DNA from: a virus
Strand: one strand, 5' to 3'
Virus record (IMG/VR): IMGVR_UViG_3300025073_000608
Coordinates: 1 to 64,000 of that record
DNA: 64,000 nucleotides
The notes under the pieces were generated by a model that worked only from the letters and a program-made list of their open reading frames with translations, was not told the origin of the DNA and did no database searches. Made by a program: the position numbers and the translations under genes. This document shows positions 16,153 to 63,158 of this stretch, piece by piece; position 1 is the first letter of the stretch; each line of letters opens with the position of its first letter.

Positions 16153-17283
16153 ATGGAAATCAAACTTAAAAACACACCAGAGCAAGTAGAGCTTATTAAG
16201 GCTATGGGTTCTAAGAGCCCAACCGTAGCTCGCGAAGCTACTGAAGCGGTCGCAGCTTTTATCTCTCCTGTTATCGAGGAAGTATTAATGACTGCTGGAA
16301 CAGTTTCTCGTATTTATCGAGATGTAGAATTTGACGAGGATTCAGACCCATCTATTCCTCTAGACCTTTTCTACAATGAAGGAGCAGGATATGTTACCGT
16401 CTGGTCACAACATGTAGCCGGTGGTCTTCCTACTTCTCAAATCGAAGGGGTTAAGGAATTAAAATTCGGAACCTATCGCCTAGATAGCGCCGTCAGCTTT
16501 AACAAAAAGTATGCTCGCAAGAGTCGTCTCGATGTTGTTAGCAAGGCTATTGAACGAATGGTTAACGAAGTCCTTATTAAGCAGGAACGTAATGGTTGGG
16601 CTGTTATTTTAAAAGCCCTTGCTGAAGCTTCCACTACAACTGTTAATGGCGGGGCTCTTGGTCACGTTATTGATTCTGTTGCTGCTGATACTTTCTTATT
16701 AGCCGACCTTAATGCTCTTATTACTCGTATTAAGAGAATCAACGAGTCGTATTCTGGAAATACTGCTGTTCAGCCTTATACAAATGGTATAACTGACCTT
16801 TATGTATCGCCAGAAGTCAAAGGACAAATCCGAGCTTTTGCTTACAATCCTATTAATACTGCTCAAACGACTGAAACCACAGCTATTGCTGGTATCCGTG
16901 GACAGTATTTAACTGACGATGTTCGTAACGAAATTTTCCGCAATGCTGGAATGCAATCTATCTATGGAGTTAACCTCGTTGAAATGATTGAATTCGGTGT
17001 CGGACAAAAATACAACGTTTTGTTCGGAAGTTTTGCTACTGCTGCAAGTTTAGCTAACTGGACTACCGCTTCAGACGAAATCTGTGTTGGAGTGGATAAT
17101 ACCCGTGGAGTATTCTTACGCCCAGTATCTCGTCAGTCTGACACTGGCTCAACATTTACTGTTGTTCCTGATGGTCAGTTTGATATGTATGGTTCTCGCG
17201 TTGAGAAAGTTGGGTTCTATGGTTCTCTTGAAGAGGGTCGTGTTTGTCTTGATGCGCGAAGTGTGGCGGGCATAATTGTTTGA
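16153..17283 (+). CDS. Major capsid protein (HK97-fold expected)
   Basis: A 376-residue protein with a clear ribosome site (ATAAGGAAACAATTTT before ATG) and more C-ending codons than most neighbours, as expected for a highly expressed gene. It follows protease/scaffold and decoration genes and is followed immediately by a strong terminator. A helix around residues 130-160 (LDVVSKAIERMVNEVLIKQE) resembles the spine helix of HK97-type capsid proteins, and ITDLYVSPEVKGQIRAFA is typical of the segment following the axial domain. An N-terminal helix may be removed by the protease. The fold is inferred from the pattern; the identity is well supported by context. Confidence 0.75.
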   Translation: MEIKLKNTPEQVELIKAMGSKSPTVAREATEAVAAFISPVIEEVLMTAGTVSRIYRDVEFDEDSDPSIPLDLFYNEGAGYVTVWSQHVAGGLPTSQIEGVKELKFGTYRLDSAVSFNKKYARKSRLDVVSKAIERMVNEVLIKQERNGWAVILKALAEASTTTVNGGALGHVIDSVAADTFLLADLNALITRIKRINESYSGNTAVQPYTNGITDLYVSPEVKGQIRAFAYNPINTAQTTETTAIAGIRGQYLTDDVRNEIFRNAGMQSIYGVNLVEMIEFGVGQKYNVLFGSFATAASLANWTTASDEICVGVDNTRGVFLRPVSRQSDTGSTFTVVPDGQFDMYGSRVEKVGFYGSLEEGRVCLDARSVAGIIV

Positions 17284-17365: not shown

Positions 17366-18250
17366 ATGAGTAATTATTTTTTATGGACAATTGAAGAAAC
17401 AGAAAAATTAAAACAATATTCTGGCAAGATGAGTTTCCATAAAATGAAAGAACTATATTTTCCAAATAGAACAGCTATTAGTTTACAAAAAAAAGCCATT
17501 AAATTAAAACTAATAAGTAATTTTAGAAAAAAGAAACATATTTTTAATCAAGAATTTTATCATCAACCAAATTTAGTAAATTCTTATTTTGCTGGAAATT
17601 TTGCAGCAGATGGTTATTTAAAATATAGGGGGAATTCAACAATGTATGTTCTTCAAGTTAATTCTAAAGATTTAGAACTTTTAGAAAGTTTTAAAAAGGC
17701 ATGTGATTTTTCTGGACCAATTCGCTCTTACCAAAGAAAAAATTATAAAAAAGAAACGTTAAAAAATGTTTCATCTTTAATTATGACAGGGGTAAATCCT
17801 TGGAGAGAGTCTTTAGAAAAGAACTTCGGGATTGTCGAAAATAAAACATTAAGAATGTCTCCCCCCAATATAATTTCCCAAGAATTAAAAATGGCATATA
17901 TAATTGGATATTTAGACGGAGACGGTTCTATTTTATTAAGACCAAAAGAAAATAGATTAAGCATTAGATTTTATAGTTGTAATTTAAAAATTATGGAGTG
18001 GATTCTTTTTGAATTAAATAATTTTTTAAAACTAAAAAATATTTTAAATAAAGCAAATCTTCAGAAAAATAAAAATTTATTTTGTATGGAAATAACTAAT
18101 TTACGAGCAGCAATTATTATTTATTATCTTAAAGACTTCCCCGTTCCCAAACTCTCTCGCAAATGGTCTAATCCGCTAGTCCTTCAATGTATCGAGGACT
18201 ATAAACAAAAATATCCAGAATTCTTTTTAGATAAACCAATAATAACTTAA
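17366..18250 (+). CDS. LAGLIDADG homing endonuclease (free-standing)
   Basis: A 294-residue protein with two LAGLIDADG motifs, SYFAGNFAADG (residues 73-83) and AYIIGYLDGDG (residues 177-187), each with the acidic catalytic residue, so it should act as a monomer. The first 50 residues look like a SANT/Myb-like helix-turn-helix (WTIEETEKL, followed by AISLQKKAIKLKLI), which often accompanies homing enzymes for extra DNA contact. It lies just after the capsid terminator with no late motif in front and is a probable mobile insertion. The usual target would be the intact intergenic site or neighbouring capsid gene in related phages that lack the gene. Confidence 0.9.
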   Translation: MSNYFLWTIEETEKLKQYSGKMSFHKMKELYFPNRTAISLQKKAIKLKLISNFRKKKHIFNQEFYHQPNLVNSYFAGNFAADGYLKYRGNSTMYVLQVNSKDLELLESFKKACDFSGPIRSYQRKNYKKETLKNVSSLIMTGVNPWRESLEKNFGIVENKTLRMSPPNIISQELKMAYIIGYLDGDGSILLRPKENRLSIRFYSCNLKIMEWILFELNNFLKLKNILNKANLQKNKNLFCMEITNLRAAIIIYYLKDFPVPKLSRKWSNPLVLQCIEDYKQKYPEFFLDKPIIT

Positions 18251-18639: not shown

Positions 18640-21600
18640 ATGCCTAATAGTTGGGTAAGGTTAAAGCAATTAAATAAACCAGAAGTTTCTGGTTATATTT
18701 TAGAGGTAGTTGGAGAATATTTAAATACTGGGTCTATTACAGGAACAGCAACAAATACTGGCCAACTCACTGGAGAATTTTATCCCCGTCATTCTAATCC
18801 TTCTGGTTATATATCTTCTGTCGAATCCGACACTTTCGTTACTTATCCATATTTATCTGGTAATAATACTAATATTCTTACTCAGGTAGATAATGGTTAT
18901 TATCCTCGTTCTAATCCTAGCGGATTTTTAGTATCTGGTCAAGTAGTATCTGGAATGATGGCCCAAACAGGATTTGCTTTTAATAGCAATGGGCAATATA
19001 CTGGATTTGTTTTATGGGCTAATACTCAAGAACTTCCATTTTTAAAATTCGATGGGGCTCAAAATCTATTTCAAATTAAAAGTCTTAATAATACAGGAAT
19101 CATTAATTTAAGTCCAGGAATTTCTGGACGTTCTATTATTTCTGGATTTGATTTATTTGTTTCTAAAATTAATAACGAGCCGTATCTTTCTTCTGGTTAT
19201 ATTACTGGAAACTTCATGAAGTCCGCTTATTTTAATGGCGCGAGCGGATTGATTTTAGATTATTTAAGTTTACAGGATGTTATTCGTGGTGGGGTATTTC
19301 ATTTTAAGACAGGCACATCAGAGAATTATTATTTGCTTGGAAAAAGATTAGGTTTTCCATCAGAAAATATAGTAATGGATATGTATGGTTTAACTAATTC
19401 CTTATATGGAATAAGTTCAAATCGTCCATTTGTTCTTGGTTTTAATGTTTATGCTCAAGAGTTATATTCTAGTGGTTATCGAGCCGTTACGACTCTTGAT
19501 TTTGCAAATAGCGGATATGTTACATTTGTTCAATTAACTGGGGCCAGCGGAGCTTTATCAGATGCCATAAATCAGGTAACTACAAATTTAGCTATTACTG
19601 GCAATTATTTACTTAATCGTTTTACTGGATTAGAGAATAGCGGAAATGTAAAGACGACAGGTAATCAAACTATTACAGGAATAAAAAGATTTACATCTTC
19701 AGTAGAATTTTCTGGCGTGGATGGATTAAGTGGTATTCAAAATATAAATTCTACTTATTGGAAATTGACTTCTTCTGGTTTAACTATTGGTAATACTGGC
19801 GGATATCAAGTTATAATAAATCCGAATAATTCTACCGGGGTTTTTCTTGTTAAGGATAGTACTATTGGTTATACGGGACCATCTCTTGGGGTTGGTTTTA
19901 GATATGATGGAGGAGGATTTTTATCAAGGGGGAAAATAGCTTTTGATGACGAGGGAAATACTGTTATTACTGCTGGACAAGTAAGATTCGCTGGGACAAC
20001 AGCGATGGTTACAGCAGGGGGGATTTTTTCTGGAAATGGAAGTCTTCTTACTAATTTAAATACTGGACAACTTACTGGCGTATTAGTTCAACAAAGTGAT
20101 TTAAATAATATTCGTCTTGTTCTTTATAATACTGGAGCGGGAACTAATCCTTTAGTTTTTACCTCTTCTGCATTTTATTTAACTAATCAATCTGGGACAT
20201 CAAAAATTAATTTATATGATGCTTCTCCATATATTAGTGGGTTTACATTTAAAAATTGTATTATTTCTGGATATGTGGCTACCACTGGAAATCAAACGAT
20301 TGCTGGTATTAAAACTTTTACTAATAATATTTACGTTTCTAACATTTCAAATACGGGAAACGTCGCTGGAATTAGTGTTGTTTTGGGAATATTGTCTGAC
20401 CCAGATTCTTTAGCGAGTATTAATTGGAGTGGTCGTCAACTATTAGATTATTCAGAACAGGAAAAACTTAATTGGAATAGTGGAATATTGGTGGGTAATT
20501 GGACTCTTAGTGGCTATAACCTCATTACTCAAGCCCAAACGGGACTTTTTGTTTCAACTGGTCAATCAGGAAATTTTTATCCAAGATATTCTAATCCAAG
20601 TAACTATATTACGGCTGCTGAGGCTGGTGGTGTTACTAGTATTAATGGACTATCAGGTATATTAACTGTTACTGGAGCTGGGCAAGTAATTTCTACATTG
20701 GTTGGTTCTACTTTTACTTTTAGCGGAACGACAAGTGGATTAGTTACAACTGGTGTTACTGGGCAGTTTGCTATGGCTAGTAAAACAGGAATATTTATTA
20801 ACACTGGTCAGACTGGACAGTTTGCTATCGCTTCTAAAACCGGAGTATTTATTACTACAAGCCAAACGGGTCAGTTTGCTAGAAGTGGTAGTTATATTAC
20901 TGGAGCGGGAACAACTGGTTATTATAATCTAACGGGAATATTAAGAATATCAGGACAAGGAACTATAACTATTACTACTGGAAATGTAGCTTCTGGACAA
21001 ATGGGACTAATTATTTCTGGTGGAGTTCCTAATACGGGAAGTTTTATTACGACGGGTCAGACAGGACAATTTTATTCAATCTTAAATCCAGCACAATTTA
21101 TTCGTTCGGGAGACGTGGCGGCTACTTATGTATCTGGAACAAAAACTGGGGCGTTTGTAGAAACAGGAAGGACTGGAATTTTAGCTGATAGGCGATATGT
21201 ATCTACAGGATATGTTGCGGTAATTGGAAATACTTCTATTAGCGGAACGAAAACATTTTTAGGGACAGTTGTAACGACCAACATCGCTGCTAAATCTACG
21301 ATTACATCTCCTACCGCTCAAATTCATTTTGCTCCAAGTTATACTGGTCCAAATACGGCCCCAATGAAATTTAATAGTGGTTGGTTAATGACGACACCAG
21401 AAAGCGGAGCTGTTGAATACGATGGACAGTTTCTTTATTTAACTGATGGAACTGGTGTTAGAGATAAATTTTTAACATCAGGAACAGGATTAAATCTTTT
21501 TGCTCTTAATACTAAAACTGGTGGATTTGTTGAAAGTTCAAAAACGGGTTCATTTGTCGAGAGTGGTAAAACTGGTTCTTTCGTTGAAAATTTTAAAACA

Positions 21601-24600
21601 GGAGCTTTTGTTGTATCTGGAAAGACAGGAAGTTTCGTTGAGAGTAGTAAAACTGGAGCTTTTGTAGAAAATAGCGAAACTGGAAGTTTTATCACGTCAT
21701 CTTTAACTGGTTCGTTTATTACATCAGGTCAAACTGGACAGTTTTATCCAATAAGTAACCCAGCTCAATTTACTAACTCTGGGAACATTTCTGGTTTAGT
21801 AGAAAATTGGAAAATTAGTAATAGAGGAAATGCTGTATCTAACTCAGCTATGATTGGTGGTTCTCCAGGAATATATAATTCGGGAGGAGCAATGCCATCT
21901 AGTTGGATTTATGCTAACGCTGCGGGACTAGGACAGATTTATGCTATTTTAGGTCAAACGGGTTTTGAGAGTGGATATAACACTTTAGATATAAGGTTTT
22001 CTGGTGTTGCTACTTATGATTCTACTATTATTGTTTATTATTTATATGCTACTCAACCAGCGAGTACTCATTCGGGGCAATATTGGACTACTAATTTTGA
22101 TGCAAGATTAATTAGTGGTACTGGGATTATATTAACACCAGGTATTGTAGAGAGAAATTCTTCTTTTACATCTTTAGGTAGTATCAATGGACCTTCGGTA
22201 AGTTTAATTAATTCTGGTTATTTAACTTTAACTGCAACTAGTAAAATGACCCAACCTACGGTGGCTTATTTTGCACCAGTAATATATAGTTATTATGCTT
22301 CTGGGGTAACGGTAGATGCCTCGATTAGATTACGAAAAATATCTGCTAGACAAACAAGTTGGGAGTCTGATTATATTGTAACGTCGGGTATTCCTATTTA
22401 TGCAACCACTGGACAAATTGTGTTTGTTTCAATGACCGGGGAATTTTATCCTCGTTCTGGAAATCCTTCTGGATTTGTAATGGGTAGTCAAACAGGAGTA
22501 TTTGTAACCACTAGCCAAACGGGGGCTTATTATCCAATCAATAATCCCGCAAGTTTTATTCGTTCTGGAGATGTAACCACAACCTACGCATTAAACACCA
22601 AAACGGGAGATTTCGTTGAGGATACAAAAACTGGTTCATTCGTGGAAATATCCAAGCTGATAACCGGGTCGGTAATAACTACTGGTAATCAAACAATTTC
22701 TGGGGTTAAAACTTTTGTTTCCATGTTACATATTAAAACCCCCGTTGATTATACCGGACCAGACGCGGCCCTTATTAAATTCAACAGCGGGGTGTTGATA
22801 AGTCCCCCTTACGAAAGCGGGACGGTAGAATATGATGGTTATCATCTATGGTTAACGGACGGAACGGGAGTTAGAAATGCTATCATGACCTCGGGGGATA
22901 TTACTGGGCAATTTTATCCCATTTCTAATCCTGCCTCATTTATCCGTTCTGGAGACGTAACGACCACGTATGCGTTAAACACTAAGACGGGGAATTTCGT
23001 AGAAGATTCCGATACGGGTAAGTTCGCCGACGCTTCGTTAAGCACGTATTACGCGCTTAATACTAAAACGGGAGCTTTTATTACAAGTAGCCAAACGGGT
23101 AATTTCATCGAACAAAATAGAACGGGTATCCTTAGTGGACTTATTCTTACAACTGGATTAAGAATGCAAGGTCCGTTAACTACAAATTTCAATTCTTCAT
23201 TAATTGAAGCACATAATAATGTTGCATTTTATGCCAATAATAGTGGTGGGACAACTGCTTTTACAGGAATAATAAAATTAACTATGCCTTTTTCTTGGAC
23301 AACATCTATGATGTCTTTAGAATTAGATGGATTTGTACATGATTATTCAGGAGCTTGGAAATTATTATTAGGGGGAACCAATCATGCGACGACTATTCCT
23401 GCCCAATGGTTTTATTGCGATGCAAAATCATTAGGCACATTACCTTTTTCTGGGGTTCGTTTTGGTCATGATGGAACAAATTGTTGTGTTTTATTAGGAT
23501 TTACGGGAACTGTTTGGCAATATCCAAAAATTATATTATCTAGAGTTCTTTTGGGTCAAAGTAATTTTTTAAATAGGGCTACTGGATGGAGTTTTTCTCC
23601 GATTACAGATGATTCATCAATAACAGGTATTGTTACTGGAAGACTTAATTATTTATCTCAAGCGGATACTCTTGATGGATATCACGCTTCATCGTTTGCG
23701 TTTGCGAGCCAAACGGGAAGTTTCATTACATCTAATCAAACGGGAGCTTATTATCCGATTAATAACCCGGCTCAATTTATTAGAAGTGGAGATGTTACCA
23801 CAACATATGCTCTTAACACTAAAACTGGCTCATTTGTTGAATCTTCTAAGACTGGTTATTTAGAAAGAGATTTATATTTTAATTCTTATCTATCGTCTAC
23901 TGGTACATTAAGTAGTTGGTGGTATAGAATTGCTATGAGTCCATGGTCTGATAGCGGTAGAGGGGCTGCTTGGGTAAGTGTAGGTGGTGAAGGTGGATTT
24001 ACTGTTCCTGGCACTCACGTTTTTTATATTAGTAAAGATTGGACTACTGGAGCAGCTATATCTTTATTACATCAAACTAATAATAGATTTATTAAAGCCA
24101 GAATTGTATTAAATAGTGTCAATGCATTTTCTGCATTTGATATTTTTGCAACTAATACAGATACAGGGTCTACACCCTCAATGTTTTGTTTAGTTAAGAA
24201 TGATGATTCATTTCATCATTCTTCTTATAAATGGAGTGGTTGTCCTTGGAGTGGATATACATCTTTACCAGCAAATGAAATGATAATGACGGAGTTAGAT
24301 ATTTCTAATAATGCTGGATTAGGTTTTGCTTATGGGATGAATACTGGAATATTTAAAGCTGATATTTTCGGTATTCAAACTAGTAATATAAATATGACCG
24401 GGGGTATTTATGGGGCCACTAATACAGGAGCTTTTGTTGAGAATTCTGATACGGGAAAATTCGCTGACGCATCGTTGAGTACATATTATACCCTTAATAC
24501 TAAGACAGGCAATTTTGTTGAACAAAATAAAAATGCCAACCTTAGCGGTTTACTTACAAGTGGATTACAGATTAGGGGACCAACTACTGTAGATTTAGAC

Positions 24601-27600
24601 CAAAACGTTAGTATTGTTCGATATAAAGATGTGGCTACTTTTGTCGGAGATTATAGTGGGGCACCAACACCACAAACGGGGACATTAAAATTAAGACTCC
24701 CATTTTCTTGGTCTGAAACAATGTTGTATTTGGAAATAGACGGGTATAGCTATAATGCTAGTGCTAGTTATCCCACAACAGGAGCTTGGAAATTATTATT
24801 AGGTGGATTCTGTGCATCATCTACTAATAGTTGGTTTCAATATTCAGCGAAGTCTTTAGGCTCTATTCCCTTTTCTGGGGTAAGATTTGCCCATGATGGA
24901 ACAAATAATTGTATATTATTAGGACAAACAGGCACCGTTTGGTGGTATCCTAAAATATTTCTTTCTCAAATAACAATGGGTTATTTGAATTTTCGTAATA
25001 AATCTACTGGTTATAATTTTACTTTAGTTACTGACGAATCAAATATTACGGGTCAAAAAACTGGTATTTTAAACGAATATTCTAATTCTGACTTATTGGA
25101 TGGTTATCATGCGTCATCGTTTACTTTGGCTTCTCAGACGGGCTCATTTATTACGAGCAGTCAAACGGGTCAGTTTTATCCAATTACGAATCCCGCTTCG
25201 TTTATCCGTTCTGGAGACGTAACGACCACGTATGCGTTAAACACTAAGACGGGGAATTTCGTAGAAGATTCCGATACGGGTAAGTTCGCCGACGCATCGT
25301 TAAGCACGTATTATGCGCTGAATACGAAAACTGGCTCATTTGTCACTTCATTATCTACTGGGGGATTCGTTACTACTGGTCAAACTGGAAATTTTGTGCC
25401 AGCTAGCGTAGGAACTGGATATTTTGATAGATATTATTATCCAGTTAAAGGAATTATTGATAATTGGAGGTTAAGTAATATAGGTAATGCTGTTCCTAAT
25501 TCAGCATTAAAAGGAACGAATACTCCTGGGATTTATGGTTCTGGTGGAGCGATGCCTTATGGATGGAGTTATGCTTATGGAAATCCAACACAGGTTACTG
25601 GAATTGTTGGAAATACTGGCGTTGAAAGTGGTTATGAATATATAGATTTTAGATTATCTGGAAGACCAAATATCGTAAGTGCTGGTGGAGTGTATGCAGC
25701 ATTTAATACCGCAAGATTTTCGCCTGCTAGTGTGGGGGATATTTGGTTAGGAAGTTGTGAAGCAAGATTACTAAGCGGAACAGGGATTACTTTGTCGGTT
25801 TTAATTACAGAAAGAAACTCAGCAGATTCTTCTTTAAATTCTACTTATGGTTCCACAATTACCCTTCTTTCATCTGATACTGGATATCAGACATCAAGTG
25901 GAGTCAGGACTTTTACAGAAGCCACCGTCGCTTATCCTGGTTTACAATTTTTTCATCAAAATACAGCAAATGTAACTGTAGACGCATCGTTTCGTATTAG
26001 AAAACCGTCTTTACGTCTTATTTCTTGGGAAAATGATTACGTTTCGACAACTGGGACTGGTATTAGACCAACGACTGGAGAGATAGTTTTTGCTTCTATG
26101 ACTGGTGGTTTTATTACTACTGGTCAGAGTGGTCAATTTTATCCGATTACCAATCCGGCCTCGTTTATCCGTTCTGGGGATGTAACAACAACGTATGCGC
26201 TGAACACTAAAACGGGCAATTTCGTAGAAGATGCTGATACAGGTAAGTTCGCTGACGCATCATTGAGCACGTATTACGCACTGAATACCAAAACGGGAAG
26301 TTTTATAGATGGCACCGCTTTAACTACTGGATTTGTAAGAACTACAGGTAATCAAACAGTTAGCGGAATTAAGACCTTCGCTTCCCAATTAAAAGTTTCT
26401 TCTATCGTCTCATCTGGAAGTTCTCTTTCGATGGTCGATTTAGAAAATTCTAGAACAACAACAAGCGCGGGCTCGGCAAGTATTGACTGGGATAGTCGTG
26501 ATTTATTAAAGAATACAGAAGATTCGACGTTAAATTGGCAATCAAAATTGCTAACAGGTGGAGCTTGGAATGCAGAAGGACTAACTTTAAGTGGTTATAA
26601 TGTTATTACTGAAGGAAACATAAGTTCTTTTGCGGGGACGCCTTCTTCTACCGGATTTGTAAGAACTACTGGATTACAAGTGGTGAGTGGAACCAAATCT
26701 TTTCTTTCAACTATATATGCGATATATATTGGTTCGGATGGAAGTTCTCAATATATTGATTTTGTAGGCTCACAAATAATAGCCGATGATGGATTAGCTT
26801 CGATTTGGTGGAGTTTAAGAGAGTTGTTAGATAATGGAGAATCTACGACTTTAAACTGGAATACTCGTTTATTAACTGGGGGAAATTGGTATGCCCAAGG
26901 ATTAGTTCTTAGTGGTTATAATGTCGTTACAGAAGGAAACATAACCCAATTTACTTCTGGGACTTCATATACTGGAATTGTTAAAACAACAGGAAATCAA
27001 ACAATTTCAGGAACAAAAACATTTGCCGATAATATTAATGTAAATACAATCGGTCCGGCAGCGGGGGGAAGTTCTATTTCCGTAGATAGCAAACAACTTT
27101 ATAGTTTATTTGGGGTTTCTTTAGATTGGGCATCTTATATTTTAAACGATAATTTAGAGAATTTATCTATTAATTGGTCTGGAAGAATTCTTACTGGAGA
27201 CTGGAAAGCTAAATCATTATCGCTTAGTGGATATAATGTTGTAACAGATAATAAAACTGGAGGATTTTTAGATAGCTCCGCTTTAACTACCGGATATGTA
27301 AGAACTACTGGCAATCAGATAGTTTCTGGAAATAAAACTTTTTATAATAATGTAGGATTTAGAGTAGAAAATGTTGGCATTGCCCAAGCTTATTTCAGTG
27401 GAAATAGTGCCGGAAAAGCTGCTTGTGCCCCAATGAGATTCGGTAGCGGAGCATTAATTGCCAGCCCTGAATCTGGAGCGGTAGAATATGATGGAAATGC
27501 CCTTTATTTAACAGACACCAGGGGTAATAGACGAAGAATCGCTTCTGACAATACCATTTCAGTTAATCCTGGTGCCACCGTCCATCTAAACGCAATATCT

Positions 27601-27876
27601 GGCACAACTTTTAAAGTAAGATTAAAGGAAGATACGTCAATAATTATTACTGGATTATATGATGGACAAGAGATAAGGGTTATCGTTACCAATCCTAAAT
27701 CTCAGTCATGGGTAGTAACATGGACTGGAGAATACTTTTTCTGTTGGGATGGTGCCGGTTCCCCAGTTCAAACGGTGGGGAGCGCGAGTGGGGATAAAAC
27801 GGACTTTTATCGTTTTTCTCGTATTTCTTCTGGGGTATTCGGTTCTTATACTCAGAATTATAATTGGCCAGTGTAA
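18640..27876 (+). CDS. Giant modular receptor-binding fibre
   Basis: A 3078-residue virion fibre. The N-terminus (SWVRLKQLNKPEVSGYI) matches that of the fibre at 4481. The shaft contains eight copies of a TTGNQTISGTKTF-type repeat, many TGQTGQF / YPISNPASF / SGDVTTTYALNTKTG linkers, and a tandem 9-residue repeat near residues 957-1032. Globular modules occur in mirror order: A1 (about 1051-1267), B1 (1504-1687), unique C (1740-1925), B2 (1967-2161), A2 (2267-2491). A modules share GNAVxNSA and GGAMP; B modules share GAWKLLLGG, HDGTN and LDGYHASSF. The tip (about 2930-3078) has VEYDGNALYLTDTRG and a strand-rich end (YRFSRISSG, NYNWPV). The A/B/C modules are likely carbohydrate-binding, but that is inference. 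Confidence 0.85.
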   Translation: MPNSWVRLKQLNKPEVSGYILEVVGEYLNTGSITGTATNTGQLTGEFYPRHSNPSGYISSVESDTFVTYPYLSGNNTNILTQVDNGYYPRSNPSGFLVSGQVVSGMMAQTGFAFNSNGQYTGFVLWANTQELPFLKFDGAQNLFQIKSLNNTGIINLSPGISGRSIISGFDLFVSKINNEPYLSSGYITGNFMKSAYFNGASGLILDYLSLQDVIRGGVFHFKTGTSENYYLLGKRLGFPSENIVMDMYGLTNSLYGISSNRPFVLGFNVYAQELYSSGYRAVTTLDFANSGYVTFVQLTGASGALSDAINQVTTNLAITGNYLLNRFTGLENSGNVKTTGNQTITGIKRFTSSVEFSGVDGLSGIQNINSTYWKLTSSGLTIGNTGGYQVIINPNNSTGVFLVKDSTIGYTGPSLGVGFRYDGGGFLSRGKIAFDDEGNTVITAGQVRFAGTTAMVTAGGIFSGNGSLLTNLNTGQLTGVLVQQSDLNNIRLVLYNTGAGTNPLVFTSSAFYLTNQSGTSKINLYDASPYISGFTFKNCIISGYVATTGNQTIAGIKTFTNNIYVSNISNTGNVAGISVVLGILSDPDSLASINWSGRQLLDYSEQEKLNWNSGILVGNWTLSGYNLITQAQTGLFVSTGQSGNFYPRYSNPSNYITAAEAGGVTSINGLSGILTVTGAGQVISTLVGSTFTFSGTTSGLVTTGVTGQFAMASKTGIFINTGQTGQFAIASKTGVFITTSQTGQFARSGSYITGAGTTGYYNLTGILRISGQGTITITTGNVASGQMGLIISGGVPNTGSFITTGQTGQFYSILNPAQFIRSGDVAATYVSGTKTGAFVETGRTGILADRRYVSTGYVAVIGNTSISGTKTFLGTVVTTNIAAKSTITSPTAQIHFAPSYTGPNTAPMKFNSGWLMTTPESGAVEYDGQFLYLTDGTGVRDKFLTSGTGLNLFALNTKTGGFVESSKTGSFVESGKTGSFVENFKTGAFVVSGKTGSFVESSKTGAFVENSETGSFITSSLTGSFITSGQTGQFYPISNPAQFTNSGNISGLVENWKISNRGNAVSNSAMIGGSPGIYNSGGAMPSSWIYANAAGLGQIYAILGQTGFESGYNTLDIRFSGVATYDSTIIVYYLYATQPASTHSGQYWTTNFDARLISGTGIILTPGIVERNSSFTSLGSINGPSVSLINSGYLTLTATSKMTQPTVAYFAPVIYSYYASGVTVDASIRLRKISARQTSWESDYIVTSGIPIYATTGQIVFVSMTGEFYPRSGNPSGFVMGSQTGVFVTTSQTGAYYPINNPASFIRSGDVTTTYALNTKTGDFVEDTKTGSFVEISKLITGSVITTGNQTISGVKTFVSMLHIKTPVDYTGPDAALIKFNSGVLISPPYESGTVEYDGYHLWLTDGTGVRNAIMTSGDITGQFYPISNPASFIRSGDVTTTYALNTKTGNFVEDSDTGKFADASLSTYYALNTKTGAFITSSQTGNFIEQNRTGILSGLILTTGLRMQGPLTTNFNSSLIEAHNNVAFYANNSGGTTAFTGIIKLTMPFSWTTSMMSLELDGFVHDYSGAWKLLLGGTNHATTIPAQWFYCDAKSLGTLPFSGVRFGHDGTNCCVLLGFTGTVWQYPKIILSRVLLGQSNFLNRATGWSFSPITDDSSITGIVTGRLNYLSQADTLDGYHASSFAFASQTGSFITSNQTGAYYPINNPAQFIRSGDVTTTYALNTKTGSFVESSKTGYLERDLYFNSYLSSTGTLSSWWYRIAMSPWSDSGRGAAWVSVGGEGGFTVPGTHVFYISKDWTTGAAISLLHQTNNRFIKARIVLNSVNAFSAFDIFATNTDTGSTPSMFCLVKNDDSFHHSSYKWSGCPWSGYTSLPANEMIMTELDISNNAGLGFAYGMNTGIFKADIFGIQTSNINMTGGIYGATNTGAFVENSDTGKFADASLSTYYTLNTKTGNFVEQNKNANLSGLLTSGLQIRGPTTVDLDQNVSIVRYKDVATFVGDYSGAPTPQTGTLKLRLPFSWSETMLYLEIDGYSYNASASYPTTGAWKLLLGGFCASSTNSWFQYSAKSLGSIPFSGVRFAHDGTNNCILLGQTGTVWWYPKIFLSQITMGYLNFRNKSTGYNFTLVTDESNITGQKTGILNEYSNSDLLDGYHASSFTLASQTGSFITSSQTGQFYPITNPASFIRSGDVTTTYALNTKTGNFVEDSDTGKFADASLSTYYALNTKTGSFVTSLSTGGFVTTGQTGNFVPASVGTGYFDRYYYPVKGIIDNWRLSNIGNAVPNSALKGTNTPGIYGSGGAMPYGWSYAYGNPTQVTGIVGNTGVESGYEYIDFRLSGRPNIVSAGGVYAAFNTARFSPASVGDIWLGSCEARLLSGTGITLSVLITERNSADSSLNSTYGSTITLLSSDTGYQTSSGVRTFTEATVAYPGLQFFHQNTANVTVDASFRIRKPSLRLISWENDYVSTTGTGIRPTTGEIVFASMTGGFITTGQSGQFYPITNPASFIRSGDVTTTYALNTKTGNFVEDADTGKFADASLSTYYALNTKTGSFIDGTALTTGFVRTTGNQTVSGIKTFASQLKVSSIVSSGSSLSMVDLENSRTTTSAGSASIDWDSRDLLKNTEDSTLNWQSKLLTGGAWNAEGLTLSGYNVITEGNISSFAGTPSSTGFVRTTGLQVVSGTKSFLSTIYAIYIGSDGSSQYIDFVGSQIIADDGLASIWWSLRELLDNGESTTLNWNTRLLTGGNWYAQGLVLSGYNVVTEGNITQFTSGTSYTGIVKTTGNQTISGTKTFADNINVNTIGPAAGGSSISVDSKQLYSLFGVSLDWASYILNDNLENLSINWSGRILTGDWKAKSLSLSGYNVVTDNKTGGFLDSSALTTGYVRTTGNQIVSGNKTFYNNVGFRVENVGIAQAYFSGNSAGKAACAPMRFGSGALIASPESGAVEYDGNALYLTDTRGNRRRIASDNTISVNPGATVHLNAISGTTFKVRLKEDTSIIITGLYDGQEIRVIVTNPKSQSWVVTWTGEYFFCWDGAGSPVQTVGSASGDKTDFYRFSRISSGVFGSYTQNYNWPV
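21508..21735 (+). repeat. Tandem 27-base / 9-residue repeat in fibre shaft
   Basis: About eight consecutive units of consensus S-x-K-T-G-x-F-V-E (SSKTGSFVE, SGKTGSFVE, NFKTGAFVV and so on, drifting to SSLTGSFIT). The third positions vary, so the units are old or codon-diversified. A regular Gly turn every nine residues fits a trimeric beta-spiral shaft. Confidence 0.8.
22939..23033 (+). repeat. Direct repeat copy 1 (95 bases), within the fibre gene
   Basis: This stretch is identical to 25201-25295, 2.26 kb downstream. It encodes the linker SGDVTTTYALNTKTGNFVED and DTGKFADA. A diverged third copy lies near 26162-26257, and partial copies near 22556, 23778 and 24435. Confidence 0.85.
25201..25295 (+). 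repeat. Direct repeat copy 2 (95 bases), within the fibre gene
   Basis: Identical to 22939-23033. It lies between module B2 and module A2 of the giant fibre, and its G/C-ending codons contrast with the AT-ending codons on both sides. Confidence 0.85.
27871..27876 (+). promoter_or_regulatory. Candidate late promoter motif GTGTAA overlapping a stop codon
   Basis: CCAGTGTAATTAAAACC: the motif contains the last Val codon and TAA stop of the giant fibre, 14 bases before the next ATG at 27885. The same GTGTAATTAA string occurs at three other gene starts. Confidence 0.4.
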
Positions 27877-28228: not shown

Positions 28229-29026
28229 ATGAATATTACGGTTACTGTTATTTCAGGACTGAATGTTGAGGCAAGTGTCGGTGGGAGCCCTCAATATTCT
28301 ACTTCTTTATCTACTCAGGAAGTTTCAGTTACCCAATCTAATTTAGAAGTCATTGTTTCTGATATCCCTTTCGTTCAAACGGGAGCTTCTACTGGTAGCT
28401 CTGTAGACACTGGTTGGATAGACTCAACCTATTATCCTCGTTCTAATCCAAGCGGTTTCGCTAGTGGTATCGACGCAAGTTCTTTATATCCAAGAACTAA
28501 CCCAAGCGGATACATTAATTCTGGATTTGTTACCGGATACACGTATTCTGGATATGTTTCAACAGGGCAAACCGGAAGCTTTGTTTCTATTTATAATACT
28601 GGTTCTTTTGTTACTACTGGACAAACAGGTTCTTTTGGGGGCGGGTCTACTCCAACAGGAAAATTATTAGATACAGGACAGGCCGCTTTAATTTATTATC
28701 CAATTTCTAATCCATCTGGTTTTATTACTAGTGCAGAATCATCTGGAGTTTTAAATATAAATGGTTTAATGGGAGCGGTTGATATTTTAAGTAATGATTT
28801 AAGTATCTCTACTGGAATTACCTCTTTAACTTTAGATTATTTTAAAAGTAACGCTACAATATTAAGAGACGGCGCTGATACGATTACGGGTGTAAATTAT
28901 GCTAATGGTCGAAGCGTAAGAATATATCGTAATATAGACGAGCAAATTACTGGCGTATCTTATGGTTATTATCAAAAAAGAATATTAAGGGATTCATCTA
29001 ATATTACTGGAATAGAATTTTTATAA
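28229..29026 (+). CDS. Short fibre protein sharing linkers with the giant fibre
   Basis: A 265-residue protein with the same linker vocabulary as the giant fibre: YPRSNPSGF, YPRTNPSGY, STGQTGSFV, TTGQTGSF, YYPISNPSGF. The last 80 residues contain three imperfect repeats (ILRDGADTITGVNYANG, RIYRNIDEQITGVSYG, ILRDSSNITGIEF) of roughly 25 residues. The N-terminal 50 residues form a separate beta-rich unit. It is probably a structural companion or accessory fibre, translated together with the genes on either side (gaps of 8 and 3 bases). Confidence 0.6.
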   Translation: MNITVTVISGLNVEASVGGSPQYSTSLSTQEVSVTQSNLEVIVSDIPFVQTGASTGSSVDTGWIDSTYYPRSNPSGFASGIDASSLYPRTNPSGYINSGFVTGYTYSGYVSTGQTGSFVSIYNTGSFVTTGQTGSFGGGSTPTGKLLDTGQAALIYYPISNPSGFITSAESSGVLNINGLMGAVDILSNDLSISTGITSLTLDYFKSNATILRDGADTITGVNYANGRSVRIYRNIDEQITGVSYGYYQKRILRDSSNITGIEFL

Positions 29027-60020: not shown

Positions 60021-61226
60021 TCAAGTAGTTATTGGAGTGTCAAGTTTTTCTACTATTGTATAGAAATCTAAATCTCTCCAAAATAATGGGGAATCTACAG
60101 CTTTTTGATATTCTTGATTATTTTGAGAAGGTGTATTATTATCTAAAGCTGAAAAGGAATAGAAAATTTGCCCTTGAGAAATAACAATTTTACTTGATTT
60201 AAAATATAATTTGTCTATTTTAGGAAGTAATTCTTGTCTGATTTTTTCATTAATTACCCCTGTTCTGGTAATTGGACCAAATTCATAGTAATTAATTTTT
60301 TTAGGTAATAGTTTGTCATCTGGCAATTCAGAAGATAAAACTATTGGAATTCCGATAGATATAACGTTTCTTACGAATTCTATATCATCATATTCTGGAA
60401 TCTTATATACTATTGTCGGAATATTTCCTTTAAAATAACGTAATAGGTTTAAATTTATTGGCTTATCTGTAACTAAAATTGCCTTTTTAAGATAATTTAA
60501 ATGATGAGCAAGAAGCTGCTCATCTAAAAATTTATCTATTCGAACCTCTACTGGAGAATCAGGATTTCCTATATTTGATGGATGATTAGGAATTAGCTCT
60601 CGGATAAGAACATTAGAATACCTATCCCCTAAATGAACGGTCTGTATTGGTAAAACGAAATTAATATTTAATAATTTTAATATTGCGTTAGCTATTTCTT
60701 CAGGTAAGATTTTATTAATTGATTTAGGATTCTCTTGTAATGCATAAGAGGGCTTTTTATTTCCAACTCTTTCATAACATTTAAATAAAATCGTTTTATC
60801 TTTAGAACTAAAATATGGGCCAGCTATTTCTGGACGAGTTGAACTATATAATGCGACAATCGGAATATCATAATGAGAGCCCAAATGAATACCAAAACTA
60901 TCAGGACCAAAATGTAATAAAGAACCCTTCATTAAATATGCTAATTGATTAATAGATGTCGCCCCTCTAAGGTCAACTACTCTTCCATAGGGAGCTTCAT
61001 AAGGAAGTCCAACTTGTAATATAGAAATATTATTCTTTAATAGGATAGGATAAATCATGTCAATGACATCTTGCCAATAAGAATAATTTTTAGCGTCTAT
61101 ATTTTGCTGGGATTGAGCCTGAAAAGTAATATATTTCTCTATCGGAATAGGAAAAAACGTTTCATAAATGAATGGTTTATGAATTTTAGCTCCACACTGT
61201 AAAGCGTATGTTTCTACAAGATGCAT
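60021..61226 (-). CDS. C-terminal half of a GT9-type glycosyltransferase plus extra domain
   Basis: A 401-residue protein. It begins MHLVETYALQCG, which is where the second half of GT9 (heptosyltransferase family) enzymes starts, and continues with SINQLAYLMKGSLLHFGPDS, GIHLGS and IPIVALYSSTRPEIAGP, the donor-binding D-S-x-x-x-H region of that family. The matching N-terminal half is the end of the upstream gene, in the same frame, separated by TAA and three codons. Residues about 200-401 form another domain (KKAILVTDKPINLNLLRYF) that I do not recognise. It may work only together with the upstream product. Confidence 0.7.
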   Translation of the reverse strand: MHLVETYALQCGAKIHKPFIYETFFPIPIEKYITFQAQSQQNIDAKNYSYWQDVIDMIYPILLKNNISILQVGLPYEAPYGRVVDLRGATSINQLAYLMKGSLLHFGPDSFGIHLGSHYDIPIVALYSSTRPEIAGPYFSSKDKTILFKCYERVGNKKPSYALQENPKSINKILPEEIANAILKLLNINFVLPIQTVHLGDRYSNVLIRELIPNHPSNIGNPDSPVEVRIDKFLDEQLLAHHLNYLKKAILVTDKPINLNLLRYFKGNIPTIVYKIPEYDDIEFVRNVISIGIPIVLSSELPDDKLLPKKINYYEFGPITRTGVINEKIRQELLPKIDKLYFKSSKIVISQGQIFYSFSALDNNTPSQNNQEYQKAVDSPLFWRDLDFYTIVEKLDTPITT

Positions 61227-61235
61227 AAGGTTTCT

Positions 61236-63158
61236 TTATTTTAAATTTAAATCAAGTTTATCTTCTCCACCATGATAGTAGGCGATATATCTTTGAGTAA
61301 GAGCATGGGGTAAATATGCGACATTAAAATATCCATTATGAGAAGAGTTTCCCTCAAGCCAAGTTAAGTTTTCCATCATAGGATGATAATCAAGGCATTT
61401 ATCCACAAACGGATTAGCAATTAAAATATCTTTAAATTGGGGCTTTGTCGCAACATATAAGGCCCAATCTGGGTAACGGTCCTTAATAGATTTAAAAATA
61501 GAAGTCGTTAAAAACACATCTCCAGCACTCTCGGGCATAACAACTAATACTCTTCCTTTATCTTCTTTATTTAAAAGACAATCAAAAGTAAGGGGAGCAA
61601 TTTGATTTTTTTGATTTTCAACGGTAGCTGTATGTCTAAAGAATTTTTCTATTTCTATCCTTGGGACGCCTTCTTTTATGCGAGCTATCCAATGTAAAAA
61701 ACCTGGGTCGTCTTTACCAATAGGCATCTTTAATATGTTGTGATACATATGAATTAGCCAATCCCCATCATCTTTAATCTCAGGGATGGCTGCCTCTGGA
61801 TTTTTTGCAGGAACATCTTCGATAAAACAAGAATCTTCGGCAAATGGAGCTGATTCAATAAATTCTTCTATTTGTTTTCCAATTATCTCTGTTGCGAAAT
61901 TATCTATCGCCCATTGCCTAGATTTCTTTTCTAGTTCTCTTTTATTTTGGGGTTTTAATTTAAATACTTTTTCTAATTGTTTGGCTATTGAAGCTGGATA
62001 TGTAGAAGCCTTAATAAATTGAGTTCCTGGTTCTCTATATTCCGACCATTCTAATGGAAAAGACCCAGATTCTTCTACGCACAAATCTTCTCCGCAACTA
62101 TAATTAGTAACCAAAGTTATCAATTCAGCCAATTTTGCTTCTTGGACAGGGATTTCTTGTCCCCCACTAGTAAATGGATGGCAGTAAACATCCATAAGAT
62201 TATATACTTCATTTAATTCTTGCTCAGAAATACCAAATGAAGGATGAGTAGTTATTTGTGACTTAGCAGTTCGACAATGAGGACAATCTTGTTCTGTTGC
62301 TAATGGAGATTTTATTTCGTATTTTTTACAAGAACGACAAACAAAAGTCGTAAGAACGTTTTCTTTTTTAATTTCGTTTTCGTCTAAAAGTTTTGGAATA
62401 TCCCAACCCTCTGTCCAGTTCGTATGTAATAAGAGTTTAGTTTTAATTTGAGGGTTTCTGTCAATAAATAATTTATAACCCTGTAAAAGGTTAGGAACCG
62501 ATTTCCTTAATTGGTTTCTAAACACAAAACCAATAACCCAAGTATTTTCATTAATATTATGTTGTTTTCGAAGACTTTTCCTATTTTCCTCAGATAATCT
62601 ATAAAATAATTTCGTAGCTAACGCTCCACGAATTGTTTTGACATGTTTATGTCCCATTTTGTGAAGGTCTTGCGTAGCGAAGTCAGCCCAAGACCAAAAA
62701 TGTTTAATTTTAGAAGCTACTTCAACAGCTTTTGGAAGAATAGGGCGAGAATCTAACGTCGTCCATAAAGCGGCAGTAATTTTAGGAAACCATGCTTTTT
62801 CGGCGCAGAAATCAATTCCCCAAATATCTTGAATAGCAATAAATACATCTGGTTTTTCGCTTTTAACCGCAGCGTCTACCGAGAAAGCTCCGTATCCAGC
62901 CATTCTATCTATATTTTCCCAAGCCCTTGGGTCATTTTGCTTTTTTATTTCTTCTAATTGTGGCGGGAAAACAGTTGGGAGAGTTTTCCATGGGGTGCGC
63001 GATAAATCTGGAGAATTAACTGCGCCAACAGCCAAATTAACTAATTCATATTTATTGGTTAAATATAAATACTCCAATAAAGCTCTTGCATTTCTTCCAA
63101 AACCTGTTTTAGCTAACGGGTGGTCCGTTAGGATTAGAACCTTTTTTTTGCGACTCAT
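61236..63158 (-). CDS. Multidomain glycosyltransferase: GT4-like, Zn ribbon, DUF4214-like, GT9 N-half
   Basis: A 640-residue protein. Residues 1-430 form a GT-B fold of GT4 type (VLILTDHPLAKTGFGRNARALL; donor-side LMDVYCHPFTSGGQEIPVQEA). A zinc ribbon, C-x2-C-x14-C-x2-C, is inserted at 274-295. Residues 466-512 (DWLIHMYHNILKMPIGKDDP, then HWIARIKEGVPR) match the DUF4214 pattern found in surface-polysaccharide and phage proteins. Residues 535-640 (RVLVVMPESAGDVFLTTSIF, KSIKDRYPDWALYVATKP, NPFVDKCLDY) are the N-terminal Rossmann half of GT9. The protein stops at TAA in the middle of the GT9 fold. It may modify host surface glycans, phage DNA or virion proteins; the target is unknown. Confidence 0.8.
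   Translation of the reverse strand: MSRKKKVLILTDHPLAKTGFGRNARALLEYLYLTNKYELVNLAVGAVNSPDLSRTPWKTLPTVFPPQLEEIKKQNDPRAWENIDRMAGYGAFSVDAAVKSEKPDVFIAIQDIWGIDFCAEKAWFPKITAALWTTLDSRPILPKAVEVASKIKHFWSWADFATQDLHKMGHKHVKTIRGALATKLFYRLSEENRKSLRKQHNINENTWVIGFVFRNQLRKSVPNLLQGYKLFIDRNPQIKTKLLLHTNWTEGWDIPKLLDENEIKKENVLTTFVCRSCKKYEIKSPLATEQDCPHCRTAKSQITTHPSFGISEQELNEVYNLMDVYCHPFTSGGQEIPVQEAKLAELITLVTNYSCGEDLCVEESGSFPLEWSEYREPGTQFIKASTYPASIAKQLEKVFKLKPQNKRELEKKSRQWAIDNFATEIIGKQIEEFIESAPFAEDSCFIEDVPAKNPEAAIPEIKDDGDWLIHMYHNILKMPIGKDDPGFLHWIARIKEGVPRIEIEKFFRHTATVENQKNQIAPLTFDCLLNKEDKGRVLVVMPESAGDVFLTTSIFKSIKDRYPDWALYVATKPQFKDILIANPFVDKCLDYHPMMENLTWLEGNSSHNGYFNVAYLPHALTQRYIAYYHGGEDKLDLNLK

What the first reader, a model, noticed from the sequence alone, without database searches (positions are those of the whole stretch)
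21790..26110. Mirror-ordered duplicated modules A-B-C-B-A in the giant fibre
Within 4.3 kb the fibre carries two copies of module A (21790-22440 and 25440-26110) and two of module B (23150-23700 and 24540-25120) around a unique C (about 23860-24410). The copies are well diverged in sequence but share fixed motifs, so one fibre could display several related binding specificities. The symmetric order is striking.
Basis: seen in the sequence. Interest (0 to 1): 0.6.

Follow-up and report, generated by a model that had tools for sequence, protein, structure and literature searches.

The report
Giant modular phage fibre, duplicated domains
A very long fibre protein of an uncultured long-tailed phage carries two pairs of duplicated globular domains, one of them shaped like sugar-binding modules, strung on a repetitive shaft; the duplications are real, but the 'mirror' order is no more than chance would give.

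Summary
The duplicated modules are real. One 3078-residue open reading frame (18640-27876, +) holds two A modules (48% identical), two B modules (51%) and a single C, at the stated coordinates. Both pairs come from duplication in this fibre's lineage (A1+A2 and B1+B2 are sisters at full support). The mirror is not special. AABBC falls into a palindrome in 2 of 30 orders. Three copies of a D motif and four of an E motif make the full order E-D-A-D-B-C-B-A-E-E-E-D, which is not symmetric. All copies run the same way on one strand, and no inverted DNA repeats were found.

A belongs to an unnamed phage tail-protein domain family and is predicted as a beta-sandwich closest to CBM4 carbohydrate-binding modules. 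B belongs to another unnamed family, predicted as a compact beta-sandwich found in shufflon and tail-fibre proteins. C is an orphan of unknown fold. Between them lie conserved shaft linkers. Related phages keep the fibre's anchor and position but carry other modules and no A, B or C. Best reading: a modular adhesion fibre whose globular modules are gained, duplicated and swapped on a fixed anchor and shaft. Several binding specificities remain possible but untested. Mostly ordinary.

The parts
18640..27876 (+). giant fibre gene, 3078 aa
   Evidence: single open frame, ATG start; BppL_N shaft motifs, Pfam E 4.3e-25
18640..18939 (+). N-terminal anchor shared with fibres of related phages
   Evidence: 39-52% identity to anchors of L174, L175, L217, L184, L171; 25 loci in IMG/VR
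21499..21738 (+). 9-residue shaft repeat array (xxxTGxFxx)
   Evidence: motif positions; tandem 27-nt spacing
21787..22440 (+). module A1
   Evidence: 48% identical to A2; A-family profile match at 21817-22374; CBM4-like fold
22720..22896 (+). D element, copy 2, lying between A1 and B1; breaks the mirror
   Evidence: 41-59% identical to D1 (21307-21483) and D3 (27376-27552)
22863..23072 (+). shaft linker L2
   Evidence: 210-nt direct repeat family, 80% to the copy at 25125; dS 0.34-0.38 to L5
23131..23700 (+). module B1
   Evidence: 51% identical to B2; B-family core about 23248-23625; predicted beta-sandwich
23707..23857 (+). shaft linker L3
   Evidence: 151-nt direct repeat family
23857..24411 (+). 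module C, single copy, orphan
   Evidence: no match in phages, viral contigs or genome contigs; not resolved by AlphaFold2
24529..25122 (+). module B2
25125..25334 (+). shaft linker L5
25438..26115 (+). module A2
   Evidence: A-family profile match at 25480-26037
26088..26297 (+). shaft linker L6
   Evidence: 82% identical to L5 over 210 nt
26467..27246 (+). three E elements (26467-26610, 26788-26931, 27103-27246); a fourth lies at 20386-20529
   Evidence: 40-62% amino-acid identity among copies

Best explanation
This is a modular adhesion fibre, probably trimeric like other fibres with this kind of shaft. A short conserved N-terminal anchor fixes it to the virion. A long shaft is built of repeated linkers. 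Globular beta-sandwich modules (A, B, probably C) sit along it as sugar- or surface-binding domains. A and B were each acquired and then duplicated inside the fibre lineage, separately or with later rearrangement; one tandem duplication would give ABAB, and an inverted one would put copies on the other strand. Near-identical linkers are the likely sites where homologous recombination adds, removes or moves modules. Two copies of each module most likely raise avidity for envelope glycans, and may also widen specificity. Shown: module identity, pairwise duplication, predicted A and B folds, linker repeats, a shared anchor with different modules in relatives. Inferred: trimer, glycan binding, avidity, recombination at linkers.
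For: Duplication. A fold: 164 PDB matches at E at most 0.001, led by CBM4-2 (2y6j, E 2.8e-8), with phage tailspikes/fibres CBA120 TSP4, K2-2 TSP and Kp7 gp52 among the top ten. A family: 116 distinct domains in viral contigs, up to five per protein (L118 x5, L054 x4, L060 x3); profile E 1.7e-19 and 3.3e-25 for A1 and A2. B family: 20 related loci in viral contigs, repeated in L023 (x2) and L024 (x3), Vibrio phage long tail fibre distal subunits, BFVD shufflon and tail proteins E 1e-13. Linkers: 210-nt direct repeats, two copies at 80-82% to the reference; L2 and L5 are much closer (dS 0.34-0.38) than the module copies (dS 1.2-1.4), so linker DNA has moved or been converted after the modules diverged. 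Swapping: relatives keep anchor and linker motifs but none of the loci from the capsid-gene and anchor searches holds A, B or C.
Against: No binding data. A has no Pfam or PHROGs match of its own, and TM-scores to CBM4 structures are moderate (about 0.33-0.64). B has no significant PDB match (best E 0.016, T4 gp9). The young L2/L5 linker pair could be a single chance gene conversion. C is unresolved. No host is known.
Confidence: 0.7

Rival explanations
1. The fibre is attached to the capsid (a head fibre), not to the tail, and its sugar-binding-like modules hold the phage near host cells or exopolysaccharide.
For: The gene lies just after a capsid-like gene (16153-17283; phrog_1650 major head protein, best E 9e-4 among 12 relatives) and well before the tail-tube-like gene (36410) and tape measure (39437). 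In all 36 related loci with at least 4 kb of downstream DNA, an SG/TG-rich fibre-like frame starts within about 2.5 kb of that gene. Head-attached proteins such as Hoc, pb10 and phi29 gp8.5 are reported to enhance cell binding through carbohydrates (PMC7602432).
Against: Gene position does not fix protein position; the capsid assignment is weak; the shaft motif BppL_N is named after a tail baseplate protein; the anchor has no known attachment partner.
Confidence: 0.3
2. A, B and C are mainly structural spacers or folding units in the fibre, with receptor binding done at the C-terminal tip (27553-27873).
For: Receptor binding is often at the distal tip (general knowledge); divergence between copies is even across strands and loops; dN/dS about 0.35.
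Against: A matches sugar-binding folds; both families recur in host-contact proteins; relatives with the same anchor lack A, B and C altogether, so they are not needed to build the fibre.
Confidence: 0.2
3. The mirror order reflects a specific mechanism, such as an inverted duplication, or a functional symmetry of the fibre.
For: The order of A, B and C alone is palindromic.
Against: 2 of 30 orders are; the full order is not; no inverted repeats; all copies run the same way. A fibre with all chains parallel is polar, so symmetry in order has no structural meaning by itself (inference).
Confidence: 0.03

Closest known systems
CBM4 carbohydrate-binding modules (e.g. 2y6j, 1k42, 3p6b)
   Same: predicted beta-sandwich of A; best Foldseek matches
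   Different: no sequence-profile match in Pfam; 13-15% identity; binding not tested
Unnamed phage tail-protein domain family (consensus RTNSIRNxTMxGAVAGTPGTxPTNW...VVGTGTExGIxYIDxR), present in proteins that match PHROGs tail families 5939 and 1419
   Same: A1 and A2 match its profile; multi-copy proteins occur
   Different: A1 and A2 form a long isolated branch (length 1.97) on a different shaft
Phage fibre beta-sandwich family of module B (shufflon protein, Vibrio phage long tail fibre distal subunits)
   Same: conserved GaIKIxLP...FGHDGTNCCIyIG...W.YP core; structural match E 1e-13
   Different: window copies are a separate pair, at most 42% identical to others
crAssphage BACON tandem-repeat tail protein (PMC6949934)
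   Same: phage fibre domains multiplied by sequential single-domain duplication
   Different: BACON array is one domain type in tandem; here two types are interspersed with shaft
Fibres of uncultured relatives (L174, L175, L217, L184)
   Same: N-terminal anchor and shaft motifs TTGNQTISGxKTF
   Different: carry SHAEG or SNFIG repeats and other C-termini; no A, B or C

Membership tests
CBM4 / CBM_4_9 carbohydrate-binding module | beta-sandwich fold of the CBM4 type | tested here: met
   predicted only: AlphaFold2 pTM 0.74; Foldseek top hit CBM4-2, E 2.8e-8, TM-score up to 0.64
CBM4 / CBM_4_9 carbohydrate-binding module | sequence-profile match | tested here: not met
   no CBM family in Pfam at E up to 10
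CBM4 / CBM_4_9 carbohydrate-binding module | binds a polysaccharide | not testable with these tools
   needs a binding assay
phage tail-protein domain family of module A | profile match over the whole domain | tested here: met
   E 1.7e-19 and 3.3e-25; hhalign probability 98.9
phage fibre beta-sandwich family of module B | profile match and conserved FGHDGTN / W.YP core | tested here: met
   E 3e-38 and 6.4e-39, with the window copies in the profile; independent tblastn hits; alignment
fibre with BppL_N shaft motif (PF18338) | BppL_N above curated cut-off | tested here: met
   86.8 bits against 25.8, 8 stretches
phage head fibre / decoration protein | attached to the capsid | not testable with these tools
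   only gene position supports it
true inverted (mirror) duplication | second copies on the opposite strand or inverted DNA repeats | tested here: not met
   0 inverted repeats; all modules on + strand in one frame

The most novel reading that the evidence does not exclude
An uncultured siphovirus group keeps a giant adhesin gene beside its capsid gene, with a constant anchor and a repetitive shaft into which sugar-binding-like modules are loaded, duplicated and swapped through linker recombination, making a capsid-borne, multi-lectin fibre.
Probability: 0.2. Interest if true: 0.55.

Novelty: new member of a known kind. Interest (0 to 1): 0.3.

Why it matters
It links two common but unnamed phage domain families to a fold and a setting: A to the CBM4-like sugar-binding fold, B to a compact fibre beta-sandwich. 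It gives a case where near-identical linkers and diverged modules suggest how long fibres gain and multiply binding domains. If the fibre proved to sit on the head, the group would be a good test bed for capsid-borne adhesins.

Tried and rejected
Mirror as signal: rejected by counting and by the D and E elements. Single tandem duplication of A-B: would give ABAB, rejected by order. C as a diverged B or A: profile comparison at background (probability 0.5 and 0.2). C relatives: none in cultured phages, viral contigs or genome contigs; a degenerate W-Y-R-I-A pattern gave no true relative, so a resemblance of C to other fibre domains that I recalled is unsupported. A profile search for A in viral and genome contigs with exact patterns from A1/A2 found nothing; a first DNA pattern for A (GSGG.PTGW) found nothing in frame; a second, built on the E.G..Y.D.R..GT motif, found the family. 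DNA-level relatives of the fibre in cultured phages: none. PDB sequence searches for A and B: nothing useful; the papain matches to B are chance-level. The capsid assignment could not be confirmed against solved structures. Self-BLASTP of the whole fibre printed no off-diagonal hits because of its settings; redone in pieces.

Full report
What is there. The region lies inside one open reading frame, 18640-27876 on the + strand, 3078 residues. The window is the first 64 kb of a 105-kb virus contig of a long-tailed phage: it has a terminase, a tape measure of 2618 residues and a tail-tube-like gene. No DNA relative of the stretch 18640-40000 is known among 50,697 phage records; the terminase has only remote relatives (about 22-31% identity) in Bacillus, Clostridioides, Staphylococcus and Microcystis phages.

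The modules. A1 (21787-22440) and A2 (25438-26115) are 48% identical. B1 (23131-23700) and B2 (24529-25122) are 51% identical with E 6e-66. C (23857-24411) is single. Neither A nor B occurs elsewhere in the contig. The trees place A1 with A2 (100/100) against 50 other A-family domains and B1 with B2 (100/99) against 20 other B-family domains, so each pair arose by duplication in this lineage or a very close one.

The mirror. Two of the 30 orders of AABBC are palindromes. The fibre has further repeated elements: D (21307-21483, 22720-22896, 27376-27552) and E (20386-20529 and three between 26467 and 27246), with 40-62% identity among copies. The whole order is E D A D B C B A E E E D. Its longest unbroken palindrome is three, which 91% of random orders equal or beat. 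D lies between A1 and B1 but not between B2 and A2. All copies point the same way and there is no inverted repeat. The symmetry is therefore an effect of looking at three of five element types.

What A is. A pattern built on the shared E.G..Y.D.R..GT motif found the family; a profile then gave 116 distinct domains in the fetched viral contigs. A profile of 42 of them matches A1 and A2 with E 1.7e-19 and 3.3e-25, and a profile-profile comparison gives 98.9%. Pfam has no model for it; longer members match PHROGs tail proteins 5939 and 1419. Proteins with several copies are common: L118 has five, L054 four, L060 three. The AlphaFold2 model (52 sequences) has mean pLDDT 79 and most core residues above 90. 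Foldseek against the PDB gives 164 matches at E at most 0.001, led by CBM4, with other carbohydrate-binding modules and phage tailspike or fibre domains among them. A is built like a sugar-binding module; membership in CBM4 fails on the sequence profile and is untested on binding.

What B is. Twenty loci in viral contigs and eight Vibrio phage records, mostly annotated as long tail fibre distal subunit or tail fiber protein, share a core of about 130 residues. It occurs in otherwise unrelated proteins, some of which I read as gpJ-like tail-tip proteins (L009 and L023; my reading, not a test), and in two or three copies in L023 and L024. The model of B1 is confident over most of residues 40-180. 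PDB matches are weak, with T4 gp9 first; predicted viral structures match strongly, with a shufflon protein at E 1e-13.

What C is. No relative was found anywhere and AlphaFold2 could not fold it from one sequence. That it is a third globular module is inference from its position between linkers and its composition.

The shaft. Between modules lie linkers of one kind: TG.F nonapeptides, FYPI.NPA.F and TTTYALNTKTG blocks, repeated as direct repeats of 151-210 nt, and BppL_N motifs. L2 and L5 differ by dS 0.34-0.38, while the module copies differ by dS 1.2-1.4 and most other linker pairs are near or at saturation. Linker DNA has thus been copied or converted more recently than the modules, as expected if linkers are where recombination happens; one event would also explain it.

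Relatives. A search with the capsid-like gene gave 60 loci and one with the fibre's N-terminal anchor 25, some from the same contigs. In all 36 loci with enough DNA, a fibre-like frame lies just downstream of the capsid-like gene; several of these frames are cut by the locus end.

How it works. Most likely the anchor holds the fibre on the virion, the shaft extends it, and the beta-sandwich modules hold envelope sugars, with copy number giving avidity and perhaps range. Divergence between copies is even over strands and loops and dN/dS is about 0.35, so nothing in the sequence singles out specificity change. Where the fibre sits, head or tail, is open: a place beside the capsid-like gene and before the tail genes is unusual for a tail fibre (general knowledge), and head-borne proteins that bind carbohydrates are known (PMC7602432).

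Verdict. The closest precedent for multiplied domains in a phage fibre is the BACON array of crAssphage (PMC6949934).

Noticed in passing
window 17366-18250: A LAGLIDADG-type homing endonuclease gene sits between the capsid-like gene and the fibre gene.
   Followed up: no
window 28229-29026: A 265-residue protein just downstream of the fibre carries the same TG.F and YYPxxNPSG shaft motifs, so it may be a second, short fibre or a fibre partner; relatives L217 and L230 also have a second short frame with the anchor.
   Followed up: partly
window 60021-63158, - strand: Two glycosyltransferase genes (Glyco_transf_9, Glycos_transf_1) on the opposite strand near the end of the virion genes.
   Followed up: no
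L217:11736-16469, L184:3167-7687: Fibres of relatives contain long SHAEGxxTxASG arrays resembling trimeric adhesin head repeats (resemblance from memory).
   Followed up: no
L118 and L054, - strand frames of 2571 and 3132 residues: Very large proteins with five and four A-family domains, in phages without this fibre's shaft motifs.
   Followed up: partly
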